Part shown: positions 12-11,710 of the stretch, piece by piece
How positions within the stretch are numbered: position 1 is the first letter of the stretch
Layout of the letters: each line of letters starts with the position of its first letter
IMG/VR virus record: IMGVR_UViG_3300002835_001317
Location: 1-21,142 of that record
Length of the DNA: 21,142 nt
Reading direction: 5' to 3' (one strand)
DNA from: a virus
The notes under the pieces: generated by a model
The model's input: the letters and a program-made list of their open reading frames with translations, nothing else
Database searches by the model: none
What the model was told of the DNA's origin: nothing
Made by a program: the position numbers and the translations under genes

Positions 12-31
12 TTTTAACACCTTTTAACACC
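12..31. repeat. Tandem 10-bp operator-like repeat, copy 1
   Basis: TTTTAACACC occurs twice head to tail at 12-21 and 22-31, one helical turn apart. It follows the tail of a terminator (the GGGCTTTTTT that opens the window) and precedes the promoter at 38-58. The same arrangement recurs at 3965-3984 and, inverted, at 7524-7543. A role as binding site for a phage regulator is inferred; no candidate regulator was identified. Confidence 0.65.
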
Positions 32-37
32 TTCGTA

Positions 38-3964: not shown

Positions 3965-3984
3965 TTTTAACACTTTTTAACACT
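3965..3984. repeat. Tandem 10-bp operator-like repeat, copy 2
   Basis: TTTTAACACT occurs twice head to tail, at 3965-3974 and 3975-3984. It has the same unit, orientation and setting (terminator before, promoter after) as at 12-31. Confidence 0.65.
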
Positions 3985-4000
3985 TGTTGTTGATTTCGTG

Positions 4001-4233: not shown

Positions 4234-4237
<4 letters not shown>
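4043..4237 (+). CDS. Small hypothetical protein (64 aa)
   Basis: The ATG at 4043 is chosen because any earlier start would lie inside the promoter. The product (MKITLIESPLVGGSKIQIIG...) has three probable beta strands (residues 2-8, 14-20, 26-34) followed by a C-terminal helix (about 46-62), a small alpha/beta fold. No motif or family was recognised. It opens the recombination operon, and its stop codon overlaps the next start by 4 nt (ATGA), implying translational coupling. Confidence 0.68.
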
Positions 4238-4782
<545 letters not shown>

Positions 4783-5434: not shown

Positions 5435-6042
5435 TGCAAGATTTCAAAATCAGATGTAGTGCCATTGGTCAAATTATGGCCAATGGCAGGGGGAAAGACA
5501 CGGCCGGGGCAACGTGCTATTCATATTTGCAAGATTGGATTGTCGAGCAGATATACGGGGTGCGCAAGCAGATTGACAGCCGACCAATGGAAAAGGGCCG
5601 ACTGGTCGAAGATGAAGCCATTGAATTCGCCGGGCAGCACCTTAACTGGTTTATGCCTGAGAAGAACGAAACCTTTTTTGAGAATGAGTTTATAACCGGC
5701 ACACCTGACGTTATTCACGGCAACACCGTTGTTGATATTAAATGCCCTTGGGATGTTTTCACTTTCCCAATGTGGGAACGCAACCCACCGAAAGGATATT
5801 GGTATCAATTGCAGGGCTACATGCACCTGTTGGGGCTTAAAAGGGCCCAGTTGGTTTACGTGCTAATGCCAACACCTGAAGAACTTGGCGGCATTCAGTT
5901 AGACCTGAGCAATATCCCAGCCAAATATCGGTTGAAGGTGTTTGACATTTACTATGATGAAGCCACCATAAATGCCATCTATGAACGGGTACAAATGTGC
6001 CGCAACATTATCGAAGTTGAACTTTTACCACAATTACAATGA
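5434..6042 (+). CDS. YqaJ/lambda-exo type exonuclease
   Basis: A 202-residue nuclease of the YqaJ viral recombinase (lambda exonuclease-like, PD-(D/E)XK) group, expected to degrade one strand of dsDNA ends and supply ssDNA to ERF. Motifs: RCSAIGQIM (residues 7-15), KGRLVEDEAIEFA (54-66, conserved Glu), TGTPDV (89-94, Asp92), VVDIKCPWD (99-107, catalytic D101-x-K103) and YWYQLQGYMHLLG (122-134, with Gln125). All core active-site residues are present. The ATG at 5434 is preferred over the GTG three bases upstream because it shares a base with the ERF stop. The 3' end overlaps the next gene by 4 nt. Confidence 0.9.
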   Translation: MQDFKIRCSAIGQIMANGRGKDTAGATCYSYLQDWIVEQIYGVRKQIDSRPMEKGRLVEDEAIEFAGQHLNWFMPEKNETFFENEFITGTPDVIHGNTVVDIKCPWDVFTFPMWERNPPKGYWYQLQGYMHLLGLKRAQLVYVLMPTPEELGGIQLDLSNIPAKYRLKVFDIYYDEATINAIYERVQMCRNIIEVELLPQLQ

Positions 6043-6509
6043 CAGAACGACAATTTGAACGCTATCTTTTGAAACAGGACAACGATAGCTTACTGAAGAT
6101 TCGCACCGAAATCGACCGCATAATCAACAGCAGAAACGATGAATTCTTTAAGATGCATCTAAAAACCGAACACCAACGCTACGTCATAAAAGCCGCTGCC
6201 GATTACTGGGGGTTACCTTATGAGGCCGCATACAGCAAACGCAGATTCAGGGAGGTTAAACACTTCAAGCATGCCATGAGGTTTGCGATGCGCTGCGCTA
6301 CATCAATGAGCCTGCAAGACATCGGCAAGATGCTGAACTGCGAGCATGCAACGGTTATGCACAGCATAAAGTTTGTGCAAGATTCTATACTGGCCGACCC
6401 ACAATACTACATGCGCTGCATCGAATTTTGCGAGCATATAAAAATGGTCATGCAAGAATTGGAATTGAACAAAAATACACCTATCTTCACATCAATAAAT
6501 TACAATTAA
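6039..6509 (+). CDS. DnaA domain IV-like DNA-binding protein
   Basis: A 156-residue protein whose residues 65-118 resemble the C-terminal DnaA-box-binding domain of DnaA. They run from a basic helix (KRRFREVKHFKHAMRFAMR) into SLQDIGKMLNCEHATVMHSI (91-110), which corresponds to the DnaA signature L.EIG..F..DHTTV.HA. The AAA+ domain of DnaA is absent. The N-terminal 60 residues are a charged helical region (ERYLLKQDNDSLLKIRTEID). By family knowledge it should bind double-stranded DNA sequence-specifically; whether it acts at a replication origin, on host DnaA boxes or as a regulator is unknown. ATGA overlap with the exonuclease gene indicates co-expression. Confidence 0.78.
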   Translation: MTERQFERYLLKQDNDSLLKIRTEIDRIINSRNDEFFKMHLKTEHQRYVIKAAADYWGLPYEAAYSKRRFREVKHFKHAMRFAMRCATSMSLQDIGKMLNCEHATVMHSIKFVQDSILADPQYYMRCIEFCEHIKMVMQELELNKNTPIFTSINYN

Positions 6510-7516: not shown

Positions 7517-7523
7517 CTGCCTA

Positions 7524-7543
7524 AGTGTTAAAAAGTGTTAACG
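7524..7543. repeat. Tandem 10-bp operator-like repeat, copy 3 (inverted)
   Basis: AGTGTTAAAA (7524-7533) and AGTGTTAACG (7534-7543) are, read on the minus strand, CGTTAACACT and TTTTAACACT, the same unit as at 12-31 and 3965-3984 but in opposite orientation. One of the two units has two changes at its edge. Confidence 0.62.
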
Positions 7544-8384: not shown

Positions 8385-8526
8385 AAACAATTTGTATATT
8401 TGTGAAGGCATTAACACGCCCATGAAAGGTAAAAACAAAAATTAACCGAGCCGTTTGTTCGGGGGTTGCGTAGAAGATGAGGCCTGCCTTGGCCAAGTGT
8501 TAACTTCTTTTACCGCCCCCGACCAA
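8381..8526 (+). promoter_or_regulatory. Promoter and structured leader of the ParB-methyltransferase gene
   Basis: TATATTTG (8395-8402) is an exact TAnnTTTG match with TTG 11 nt upstream (8381-8383). The leader of about 120 nt contains a 7-codon ORF (8422-8445, MKGKNKN) and a perfect 7-bp inverted repeat, TCGGGGG (8459-8465) with CCCCCGA (8516-8522), ending 4 nt before the start codon. Inside it is GTGTTAAC (8497-8504), complementary to TTAACAC at 8411-8417 and similar to half of the junction operators. Translation control or autoregulation is possible. Confidence 0.5.
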
Positions 8527-9699
8527 ATGGCTTCTTTATTAAAACCTATGCAAAATTTAAGCATTAATCCTGAACTGAAAGCGTTAATCCCACCATTAAC
8601 AAGTGAGGAGTTTGCGCAACTTGAAGCCAACGTATGCCAAGAAGGTATTCGGGAGCCAATTATTACATGGCAAGGCACAATCGTAGATGGCCACAACCGA
8701 TACGAACTGGCCCAAATGTATGACCTGCCGTTTAAGGTGAAGGAGATGGCCTTTGCTTCGATGGAGGACTGCAAAGAGTGGATGATTCGCAACCAATTCG
8801 GTAGGCGAAATTTGAGCAATTACCAAAGGTCGGTACTTGCTTTAGAACTTGAAAGCGTGTTTAAGGCCAAGGCCAAAGAAAACCAAATAAGAAAGCCTGA
8901 ATCTGTTTTACAGAAATCTGTAGAACAAAAACCTATTGACACTCAAAAAGAACTGGCCAAGGTTGCTAATGTTTCGCATGACACCATCGCCAAGGTAAAG
9001 GTTATTGAAGCCAAAGCACCTGAAGAGGTAAAGGCCAAACTTTCAACAGGGGAGGTAAGCATTAACCAAGTTTACCAAGATATTAAGAAGGAGGAGAAAA
9101 AAGCCGAACTTGAAAAGAAAAAAGAAGAGTATTCGGAAAGAATAACTACAAAGTCAAACAATGATTTCAAGGTAGATATTTTCAATACAAATGAAAAATT
9201 TAGGGTTATTTATGCCGACCCAGCATGGAGCTATAATGATAAGCAAGACACCCCGCAATTGGGCGGTGCGGCGAAGCACTATCAAACCATGAGTGTTGAG
9301 CAAATTTGCCAATTGCCTGTAAAACAAATTGCAGAAAAAGACAGCGTTTTGTTTTTGTGGGTTACATCGCCTTTGTTGGAAGATTCTTTTAGAGTGATAA
9401 ATGAATGGGGGTTTAAATACAAAACTTCATTCATTTGGGATAAAGTAAAACATAACATGGGGCACTATAATTCTGTAAGGCATGAGATACTTTTAATTGC
9501 GACAAAGGGTAGCTGCGTGCCCGATAACAAGAGGCTTTATGACAGCGTTCAGGCAATCGAAAGGAATGACAACCACAGCGAAAAGCCTATTGAATTTTTA
9601 AACATTATTGATGACCTGTATAATTACGGGAACAAACTTGAAATGTTTTGTAGAAACATCAAAAAAAGCAACTGGTATGGATGGGGAAATGAATTATAA
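8527..9699 (+). CDS. ParB-like/MT-A70 adenine methyltransferase fusion
   Basis: A 390-residue protein from the ATG at 8527; an ATG at 8548 is also possible, and upstream in-frame codons lie in the structured leader. Residues 10-105 form a ParB/Srx-type domain with the motif VDGHNRYELA (53-62). Residues 139-161 are a helix-turn-helix (QKELAKVANVSHDTIAKVKV). Residues 185-205 form a charged coiled linker. Residues 222-390 are an MT-A70 family N6-adenine methyltransferase: YADPAWSY (229-236) is the catalytic DPPW motif in the DPAW form, FLWVTSP (276-282) follows, then the GF....F.W.K....G.Y.....E..L.A segment (295-326) and HSEKP (350-354). The domain order is known from other phages. It should methylate adenines in phage DNA, perhaps against restriction. 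It overlaps the next gene. Confidence 0.88.
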   Translation: MASLLKPMQNLSINPELKALIPPLTSEEFAQLEANVCQEGIREPIITWQGTIVDGHNRYELAQMYDLPFKVKEMAFASMEDCKEWMIRNQFGRRNLSNYQRSVLALELESVFKAKAKENQIRKPESVLQKSVEQKPIDTQKELAKVANVSHDTIAKVKVIEAKAPEEVKAKLSTGEVSINQVYQDIKKEEKKAELEKKKEEYSERITTKSNNDFKVDIFNTNEKFRVIYADPAWSYNDKQDTPQLGGAAKHYQTMSVEQICQLPVKQIAEKDSVLFLWVTSPLLEDSFRVINEWGFKYKTSFIWDKVKHNMGHYNSVRHEILLIATKGSCVPDNKRLYDSVQAIERNDNHSEKPIEFLNIIDDLYNYGNKLEMFCRNIKKSNWYGWGNEL

Positions 9700-10141
9700 A
9701 GAATACTATAATTCATCCCTTCAAAAGGGGCTTGAATTTCAGGACTTTGTTGCTATTGCTTTATTGAAAGAAATAGGCATACCGCTAACATCTTTGTCAA
9801 GCAAAAAATTTCAATTCTCTGTAGGTGAAAATCTACAGGGGATTGAGATAAAATTTGATGATAAATTCTTTGATACAGGGAACATATACATTGAGGTTAA
9901 AGAAAAAAGCAACCCTATAAATTTAAATTATGTCGATTCGGGCATTTATAGAAATGACAACACTTGGCTTTATTTAATTGGCAACTATTCAACGATGTTT
10001 ATTTTTGGAAAAAAACATTTGCAACTAATGTATGAATCCCAAAAGTATAGAGAGGTTGAAAACAGTACCAAAACTTCTATTGGGTTTCTTGTGCCCGTAT
10101 CCGATGCAACTAAATATTCACTTAAAAAAATCAATTTATGA
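9689..10141 (+). CDS. Putative PD-(D/E)XK-like nuclease, AT-rich
   Basis: A 150-residue protein starting inside the end of the methyltransferase gene (11-nt overlap); ATG at 9677 is an alternative start. It has the layout of a PD-(D/E)XK endonuclease: an N-terminal helix with a Glu (LQKGLEFQDFVAIALLKEIG, residues 11-30), then GENLQGIEIKFDDKF (46-60), then GNIYIEVKEKSNP (64-76) with E69-x-K71, and a core strand (TWLYLIGNY). Proteins with GIEIK.D...TGN.YIE...KSNP are familiar to me as uncharacterised phage genes; the nuclease call is inference from motif order. Base composition is clearly AT-richer than in the flanking genes, suggesting separate acquisition. Coupling to a methyltransferase resembles a restriction-modification pair. 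Confidence 0.55.
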   Translation: MNYKEYYNSSLQKGLEFQDFVAIALLKEIGIPLTSLSSKKFQFSVGENLQGIEIKFDDKFFDTGNIYIEVKEKSNPINLNYVDSGIYRNDNTWLYLIGNYSTMFIFGKKHLQLMYESQKYREVENSTKTSIGFLVPVSDATKYSLKKINL

Positions 10142-10914
10142 AACAACTACCTTGGTTTAAATTTAGCCCAGCCGACTGGATGATGGGCAGAATATCCCGG
10201 CAATCTTGCGAGGTGCAAGTGGCATTTTTAAGGCTATGCTGCATCTACTGGAATGCCGAATGCGTTATGACGTATGAGCACGCCGAACTTGAAGCCGATG
10301 GCTACCTTGAAAAGCTAATTGCCTTGAAGATGGTTGAGGTTTACGATGATGGCATTGGCATCAAATTTCTTGATATTCAGTTCAGTGAAGGCCAGCAAAA
10401 GCGTGAAAAAATGTCCAACGCTGGTAAGGCGTCTGCTGAACGTAGGCTGAACACAAGTTCAACGAATGTTCAACATACGTTCAACGAATGTTCAATAGAG
10501 AAGAGAAGAGAAGAGAAGAGTAGAATAAGAGAAGATAAGAAAGAGAATGTAAGCGCATACACCCGTGAAGATTTTTGTAATGATTTGCTTGGTGATTTCA
10601 AAACCGATGAAAACCTTCGTGAAGTAACGATGATGTGGCTTAAGCGAAAAAAGGTCATAACCAAGCAAAGTATGCTGATTTCAAAAAAAGAAATTGCCGG
10701 GCATACGCCAGCCGAAATGTACACGGCAATAATGTCGGCAGCCGAAAAGAATTGGGCGCAGCTATACGGCAGAAAAGATAAGCAAAGCAAAGGCACATCA
10801 ACAAGTTTGCCAGCTGGTAAGCCTTGGCTGGATCCGGCAACGATAGCCGCAGCAGAACGAAGCGCAAAGCGTTTAGAAGCCTTGGCCAACCCTTCACCTG
10901 ATATGCCGTTTTAA
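10138..10914 (+). CDS. Replisome organiser-like replication protein
   Basis: A 258-residue protein with the build of phage replication initiators (lambda O/DnaD-like). The N-terminal 85 residues (WFKFSPADWMMGRISRQSCE...) resemble the DUF1376/replication-protein winged-helix domain of such proteins. A low-complexity charged linker (about residues 95-140, SIEKRREEKSRIREDKKEN) follows. The C-terminal region (about 190-225, HTPAEMYTAIMSAAEKNW) resembles the helix that binds helicase or its loader. It ends with a P-rich tail. The linker DNA holds six 11-bp iterons and a purine-rich tract, as in lambda O. ATGA overlap links it to the upstream nuclease gene, and the helicase loader follows 19 nt later, the same order as lambda O-P. 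Confidence 0.78.
   Translation: MKQLPWFKFSPADWMMGRISRQSCEVQVAFLRLCCIYWNAECVMTYEHAELEADGYLEKLIALKMVEVYDDGIGIKFLDIQFSEGQQKREKMSNAGKASAERRLNTSSTNVQHTFNECSIEKRREEKSRIREDKKENVSAYTREDFCNDLLGDFKTDENLREVTMMWLKRKKVITKQSMLISKKEIAGHTPAEMYTAIMSAAEKNWAQLYGRKDKQSKGTSTSLPAGKPWLDPATIAAAERSAKRLEALANPSPDMPF
10435..10500 (+). repeat. Six contiguous 11-bp iterons (candidate origin)
   Basis: Units in register: GCTGAACGTAG (10435-10445), GCTGAACACAA (10446-10456), GTTCAACGAAT (10457-10467), GTTCAACATAC (10468-10478), GTTCAACGAAT (10479-10489), GTTCAATAGAG (10490-10500). The first two are the inverted form (GYTGAAC is the complement of GTTCARC), the last four the direct form. The 11-bp period is not a multiple of three and the encoded protein is not repetitive, so the repeat is maintained at DNA level. 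Confidence 0.8.
10497..10547 (+). other. Purine-only tract beside the iterons (candidate unwinding element)
   Basis: Fifty-one bases contain no C and only three T (10521, 10526, 10536). The first 24 (10497-10520) are pure purine in an AGAAG pattern. The tract directly abuts the iterons. Strand-asymmetric purine-rich DNA next to iterons is the known layout of the lambda origin; here it is a candidate duplex-opening region. Confidence 0.65.
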
Positions 10915-10933: not shown

Positions 10934-11710
10934 ATGAAAACCTACACACTAACCGAAACAACCCTTGACCGCCGGGCCATCGAACTGGCCAGCATCGTAT
11001 TTCGCCCCAACAAAATGGTTTTGACAAAAGAACGTGCCGCCGCCGTGCGAAAACTTTGCACCGCATTCGACACCAACAAATCGTTTTTCTTGACTGGTGA
11101 TACTGGCACAGGCAAAACAATTTACACACGGTTGTTCTTAGCTGCCCAACCCGAAAAGCAATTTACCTTCTACAACATGCGGCATCTGTTTCGTGAGTAT
11201 GCGGCCATGAAAAACCCTGATGAATTTATATTATCCTTCATCCACAAAACGAAGTACGGGCATTTGATTTTAGACGATGTCGGGGCTGATGAAGCGGTCG
11301 GGGCGTTTGGGCGGCAGAACACGATCCTGTACGATATTATCGAAAGCCGAATGGATAGCAAGTTCATTACTGGCATTATTTCAAACAACACCCTGTCCCA
11401 AATTTTGGCACGATTCGGGACGGACGGCCAGCCCGATGCACGGTTAATGTCACGCTTCAAAAAGTGGGAAACGATTATCATGCCAGGTGATGACCTTCGG
11501 GGTGAGGTCGAAGTGATGCCGCTTTCTGAATGGCCCAAGGTTGTTTTGCCAGCCGAACCCGAAGAACAAGGCGTGCCATGCCCTGACCATTTACGTGCTG
11601 AGATTTACGAAAAGTTGGGCATCATTGCCAATCGGGTAGTTGAAGGACCGCCCAGCAAAGCCGACGAAATGCGCAACGCTTTTTGGGGCAAATACACACC
11701 GCCACAATGA
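10934..11710 (+). CDS. DnaC-like AAA+ helicase loader
   Basis: A 258-residue AAA+ ATPase expected to load the replicative helicase at the phage origin. Walker A is GDTGTGKT (residues 55-62), Walker B is LILDDVG (111-117), sensor 1 is SNN (150-152) and a probable arginine finger lies in RLMSRFKKW (170-178). These are the hallmarks of the DnaC/IstB-like group, in the usual order and length. The N-terminal 45 residues are the variable partner-binding region; the C-terminal tail (190-258) is acidic and Pro-rich. It follows the replisome organiser by 19 nt, and no helicase gene is seen in the window, so it probably recruits the host DnaB or one encoded elsewhere. It overlaps the next gene by 4 nt. 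Confidence 0.86.
   Translation: MKTYTLTETTLDRRAIELASIVFRPNKMVLTKERAAAVRKLCTAFDTNKSFFLTGDTGTGKTIYTRLFLAAQPEKQFTFYNMRHLFREYAAMKNPDEFILSFIHKTKYGHLILDDVGADEAVGAFGRQNTILYDIIESRMDSKFITGIISNNTLSQILARFGTDGQPDARLMSRFKKWETIIMPGDDLRGEVEVMPLSEWPKVVLPAEPEEQGVPCPDHLRAEIYEKLGIIANRVVEGPPSKADEMRNAFWGKYTPPQ

What the first reader, a model, noticed from the sequence alone, without database searches (positions are those of the whole stretch)
10435..10547. Candidate lambda-type origin: six 11-bp iterons plus a purine tract inside the replisome organiser gene
Six contiguous 11-mers lie in strict register (two inverted GCTGAAC units, four direct GTTCAA units), and a 51-bp tract with no C and only three T abuts them. 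The period is 11, so the repeat is not a by-product of a repeated protein; the encoded linker is not repetitive. In lambda, the origin lies inside the O gene as iterons followed by a purine-asymmetric AT-rich region, and O is followed by P, a helicase loader. Here the order organiser, iterons, purine tract, AAA+ loader is the same. The inverted pair followed by direct units adds a possible orientation signal. What I see is the repeats; origin function is inference.
Basis: partly seen in the sequence, partly recalled or inferred. Interest (0 to 1): 0.82.

Follow-up and report, generated by a model that had tools for sequence, protein, structure and literature searches.

The report
Phage replication origin inside initiator gene
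A freshwater bacterial virus, probably of Bacteroidota, seems to carry its DNA replication start site inside the gene for the protein that starts replication, an arrangement known from phages lambda and SPP1; relatives that swapped the protein's DNA-binding half also swapped the repeats, so the reading is well supported but not of a new kind.

Summary
The repeats and the purine tract are real, selected at the DNA level, and best read as a phage replication origin inside the initiator gene. Six 7-bp cores (consensus GTTNAAC) start every 11 bp from 10435 to 10490; the 51-bp tract (10497-10547: no C, three T) follows. Recoding the same protein with the phage's own codon usage never reproduces either (0/5000; 0/20000). 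In 17 distinct linkers of relatives, GTT and AAC of units 4-5 never change while the centre base does, even where that alters the protein. Relatives with an unrelated N-terminal domain (PHROG: DnaD-/O-like initiator) but the same C-terminal domain carry different, 12-bp iterons plus their own C-free AT-rich tract: repeat type follows the N-domain in 25/25 distinct genes. Distant relatives keep the layout with other repeat sequences. Correction: the 'two inverted units' are weaker copies of one near-palindromic core, so they give no orientation signal. Exception: L088-L090 have a 62-65% identical N-domain without repeats or tract. GC skew is uninformative. Binding and initiation are inferred, not shown. 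New member of a known kind.

The parts
10138..10914 (+). Gene of the putative initiator (replisome organiser), 258 aa
   Evidence: PHROG 29280, 9327 (primosomal), 5708 (DnaD-like loader)
10138..10434 (+). N-terminal domain (residues 1-99), putative iteron binder
   Evidence: Confident helical domain with two short strands; fold matches to DUF1376 and Lin1244-like phage proteins; replaced by another initiator-type domain in swapped relatives
10435..10441 (.). Unit 1, GCTGAAC (one mismatch to GTTNAAC)
10446..10452 (.). Unit 2, GCTGAAC (one mismatch; GTTCAAC or GTTTAAC in some relatives)
10457..10463 (.). Unit 3, GTTCAAC
10468..10474 (.). Unit 4, GTTCAAC; GTT and AAC invariant in 17 linkers
10479..10485 (.). 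Unit 5, GTTCAAC; GTT and AAC invariant in 17 linkers
10490..10496 (.). Unit 6, GTTCAAT
10497..10547 (+). Purine tract (A31 G17 T3 C0), putative DNA unwinding element
   Evidence: Most purine-rich 50-mer of the window and 0/20000 recodings; least stable 60-mer of the gene begins at 10493
10561..10911 (+). C-terminal domain, shared by phages with either N-domain; putative loader contact
   Evidence: Homology resumes at 10516-10524 in swapped phages
10934..11710 (+). DnaC-like AAA+ helicase loader
   Evidence: phrog_50, 6.9e-17

Best explanation
This is the phage's replication origin, placed inside its initiator gene. Proposed steps: (1) the N-terminal domain of the 10138-10914 protein binds GTTNAAC cores that recur about once per DNA turn, building a nucleoprotein array on one face of the helix [repeats, spacing and DNA-level selection shown; binding inferred]; (2) the array destabilises the abutting purine-asymmetric tract, the least stable 60 bp of the gene [stability calculated; melting inferred]; (3) the C-terminal domain recruits the DnaC-like loader of the next gene, which puts the replicative helicase on the opened strand [gene order and homology shown; recruitment inferred]. 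The encoded linker is predicted to be poorly ordered, which leaves the DNA free to carry the origin. N-domain, iterons and tract form a cassette that can be exchanged whole.
For: Array and tract exceed every synonymous recoding. GTT and AAC of units 4-5 invariant in 17 distinct linkers while the centre base varies, in unit 4 at a first codon position. Codon identity between clades 94% in the linker against 66% elsewhere, P = 6e-6. Repeat type follows the N-domain in 25/25 distinct genes across two C-clades; the swapped-in N-domain is classed as DnaD-/O-like initiator. Array single-copy in each type-A contig searched, absent from the two type-B contigs. Least stable 60-mer of the gene lies at the tract in both types. 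Loader gene follows. Layout recurs in distant relatives with other repeats.
Against: No binding, melting or replication data. GC skew shows no switch at the array. L088-L090 have a 62-65% identical N-domain without repeats or tract. The repeats lie between N-domain and crossover, so co-exchange is expected of any contiguous transfer. Local gene conversion could also raise codon identity. In most distant relatives the per-gene repeat test is not significant.
Confidence: 0.85

Rival explanations
1. Operator or autoregulatory array: the protein (or another one) binds inside the gene to limit transcription, and the true origin is elsewhere.
For: Phased repeats can be operators; GC skew does not mark this place as an origin; L088-L090 replicate without such an array in this gene.
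Against: The array lies about 300 bp inside the coding region, not at a promoter; it is always followed by the C-free tract in type A and type B, which an operator does not need; repeat type follows the initiator's N-domain; the next gene is a helicase loader.
Confidence: 0.08
2. Recombination linker: the purine tract is kept mainly as a crossover point for exchanging replication modules.
For: Homology between the two N-types resumes at 10516-10524, inside the tract; both N-domains occur with both C-clades; GA-rich runs recur in distant relatives.
Against: Does not explain the iterons or their 11-bp phasing; the tracts of the two types differ (GAGAAGAG against AATAAAGAAGG), so they are poor homology patches. 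It may be a side effect of the origin rather than an alternative.
Confidence: 0.04
3. By-product of the protein: a low-complexity charged linker (EKRREEKSRIREDK) whose codons happen to give repeats and purines.
For: Lys/Glu/Arg-rich linkers give purine-rich DNA; within-gene codon permutation alone is only weakly significant for the tract (p 0.035).
Against: 0/5000 and 0/20000 recodings with the phage's own codon usage; all four Arg codons of the tract are AGA, 10% elsewhere; GTTNAAC kept in different codon phases while residues change.
Confidence: 0.02

Closest known systems
Phage lambda origin inside gene O, with P (PMC7466680, PMC5043065, PMC6022878)
   Same: Iterons in the middle of the initiator gene, followed by an A+T-rich tract with nearly all purines on one strand, then the loader gene P.
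   Different: Lambda has four iterons, each a 19-bp imperfect inverted repeat; here six 7-bp near-palindromic cores at 11-bp pitch. No O-family match for this N-domain; the loader is DnaC-like.
Phage SPP1 oriL inside gene 38, with gp39 loader and gp40 helicase (PMC6316719)
   Same: Direct repeats plus AT-rich unwinding element inside the origin-binding protein gene; separate helicase loader.
   Different: SPP1 has a second origin (oriR) about 13 kb away; in the type-A contigs searched the array occurs once. No sequence kinship to gp38 was seen.
Iteron plasmid origins (review PMC5043065)
   Same: Iterons in phase with the DNA helix beside an A+T-rich opening region.
   Different: Plasmid iterons bind monomeric Rep-type initiators (PMC5043065), and the origin usually lies outside the rep gene (own knowledge).

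Membership tests
In-gene iteron origin (functional class of lambda O and SPP1 gene 38) | Repeated sites inside the initiator gene, beyond protein constraint | tested here: met
In-gene iteron origin (functional class of lambda O and SPP1 gene 38) | Adjacent AT-rich or purine-asymmetric tract | tested here: met
In-gene iteron origin (functional class of lambda O and SPP1 gene 38) | Helicase loader gene next to the initiator gene | tested here: met
   phrog_50 DnaC-like
In-gene iteron origin (functional class of lambda O and SPP1 gene 38) | Initiator binds the repeats and replication starts there | not testable with these tools
   Needs binding assays and initiation mapping; GC skew uninformative
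Lambda O protein family | Sequence match to O-like initiators | tested here: not met
   No O-like PHROG hit and no significant Pfam hit for the window protein; the alternative N-domain of swapped relatives does hit O-like families
Lambda O protein family | 19-bp inverted-repeat iterons | tested here: not met
   7-bp cores at 11-bp pitch; lambda value from PMC7466680
DUF1376 (PF07120) / Lin1244-like N-domain proteins | Significant profile or fold match of the N-domain | tested here: inconclusive
   No Pfam match for the window protein; relative L095 weak, E 0.039; fold match to a phi19:1 protein annotated DUF1376, E 3e-5

The most novel reading that the evidence does not exclude
A C-free, GA-rich tract next to short repeats in the disordered linker may be a general origin mark of DUF1376/Lin1244-type initiators in Bacteroidota phages, with N-domain, iterons and tract exchanged as one cassette at a crossover in the tract; origins of uncultured phages could then be read from sequence alone.
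Probability: 0.35. Interest if true: 0.55.

Novelty: new member of a known kind. Interest (0 to 1): 0.42.

Why it matters
It gives a specific, testable origin for a group of uncultured freshwater phages, and a natural domain-swap set (two N-domains, two C-clades, two repeat types) in which initiator-origin specificity can be tested with existing sequences. One literature search for Bacteroidetes phage, origin of replication and iterons together found no paper; the library is partial, so this is only a lead.

Tried and rejected
GC skew over five contigs of 37-39 kb: no switch at the array, no other origin indicated. DnaA boxes in the window: 8 one-mismatch sites against 5.7 expected, no DnaA-type origin signal. 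Inverted-pair orientation signal: rejected. Codon permutation inside single genes: low power for the tract, because the linker supplies many of the AGA codons; the phage's own codon usage was used instead. PDB by sequence or fold: nothing significant. Bacterial genome scan: three distant hits only. A relocated origin in L089's contig: only a weak 11-periodic TTATAA stretch in an intergenic region, not pursued.

Full report
What was checked. The window is a 21,142-base virus record. Gene 10138-10914 encodes 258 residues with PHROG matches to 29280, 9327 (primosomal) and 5708 (DnaD-like loader); the next gene, 10934-11710, is a DnaC-like loader. The six heptamers and the 51-bp tract are as reported.

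More than chance. The array is the best 11-periodic stretch in the window. With the protein held fixed and codons drawn from the phage's other genes, the GTTNAAC register score (33/36) was never reached in 5000 trials (mean 25.0, sd 1.9, maximum 32), and the purine count of codons 10495-10545 (47 of 51) never in 20,000 (mean 40.4, maximum 46). All four Arg codons of the tract are AGA, which is 10% of Arg codons elsewhere in the phage.

What the repeat is. Among the window and 25 close relatives the linkers fall into 17 distinct sequences. In units 4 and 5 GTT and AAC are invariant and only the centre base of the heptamer varies; the two units sit in different codon phases, and in unit 4 the variable base is a first codon position. 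That points to selection on DNA. Between the two clades, codons of shared residues are 94% identical over residues 106-137 and 66% elsewhere (P = 6e-6).

A natural domain swap. L026-L030 and L145-L152 (overlapping sets of contigs) share the C-terminal domain but have another N-domain (MCGYIQLHRK...), another iteron (AAAGGGCACATC, 12 bp) and another C-free AT-rich tract. The full swapped protein, best match over residues 1-180, is classed as DnaD-like or O-like initiator. Homology with the window resumes at 10516-10524, inside the tract; upstream it is lost at about 8420-8550, where the window has a methyltransferase gene and a further gene. Both N-types occur with both C-clades, and repeat type follows N-type in 25 of 25 distinct genes. 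Because the repeats lie between the N-domain and the crossover, this is expected of any contiguous exchange; it is strong consistency, not proof. The array pattern is confined to this one place in seven type-A contigs and absent from both type-B contigs searched.

Wider relatives. Cellulophaga phi10:1 and Nekkels_1, Leeuwenhoekiella Arctus_1 and metagenomic relatives L095, L106, L118, L119, L142, L143 and L177 have short repeats in the linker followed by a purine-rich run, C-free over 46-68 bases in all of these but L177, whose linker run (GAGGAGAGTAGAGAAGAG...) is not the gene's longest C-free stretch. Repeat sequence varies; GTTCAAC at 11 bp recurs in Nekkels_1 (p 0.023, uncorrected) and, by eye, in the L095 linker. 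In most of these the per-gene tests are not significant, so the wider claim rests on a repeated pattern read by eye. Exception: L088-L090, 62-65% identical in the N-domain, have neither repeats nor tract; in L089 the next gene looks like a DnaB-type helicase from its sequence.

Structure. A 13-sequence model gives a confident helical N-domain with two short strands and a low-confidence segment 108-139, which most of the array and tract encode. Best fold matches are viral proteins, among them DUF1376 and Lin1244-like ones; nothing in the PDB is significant. The overall model is poor (pLDDT 64.5, pTM 0.36), so only the N-domain is used.

Mechanism and comparison. The layout matches lambda (iterons, then a strand-asymmetric purine tract inside O, then P; PMC7466680, PMC5043065) and SPP1 (oriL in gene 38, gp39 loader; PMC6316719). 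It works like these but is not a lambda O relative by any test here. GC skew neither supports nor contradicts. Binding, melting and initiation remain inferred. Host assignment to Bacteroidota rests on the named hosts of the nearest cultured relatives; the freshwater origin is a guess from the metagenome sources and was not checked.

Noticed in passing
window 12-33, 3965-3985; 7523-7541 in the other orientation: Tandem 10-bp repeats TTTTAACACC/TTTTAACACT between genes, in several relatives right after a terminator-like hairpin. By eye a TANNTTTG-like promoter box follows the first two, so they may be operators of a phage regulon.
   Followed up: partly
window 6039-6509: Protein with a stand-alone DnaA domain IV (Bac_DnaA_C, E 4e-11), a second possible DNA-binding replication factor in this phage.
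   Followed up: no
window 8455-9699: MT-A70 methyltransferase whose N-terminal part matches ParB-like families; absent at this place in the phages with the other N-domain.
   Followed up: no
window 9608-10141: Gene just upstream of the initiator, PHROG 13596 of unknown function; with the methyltransferase it lies in the segment missing from swapped phages. By eye it could be a nuclease.
   Followed up: no
window 4515-4694: GCTGCT-type tandem repeat (TRF period 9/18/33) encoding an Ala/Tyr-rich stretch in ORF 4234-4782.
   Followed up: no
L172:1083-1450: In a relative without the in-gene array, an intergenic AT-rich stretch with 11-periodic TTATAA motifs next to a gene that looks by eye like DnaA domain IV; possible relocated origin.
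   Followed up: partly
L164/L165 and L168/L169 (contigs G004, G007): 127-bp direct repeats at the contig ends, probably assembly overlaps of a circular map rather than true termini.
   Followed up: no
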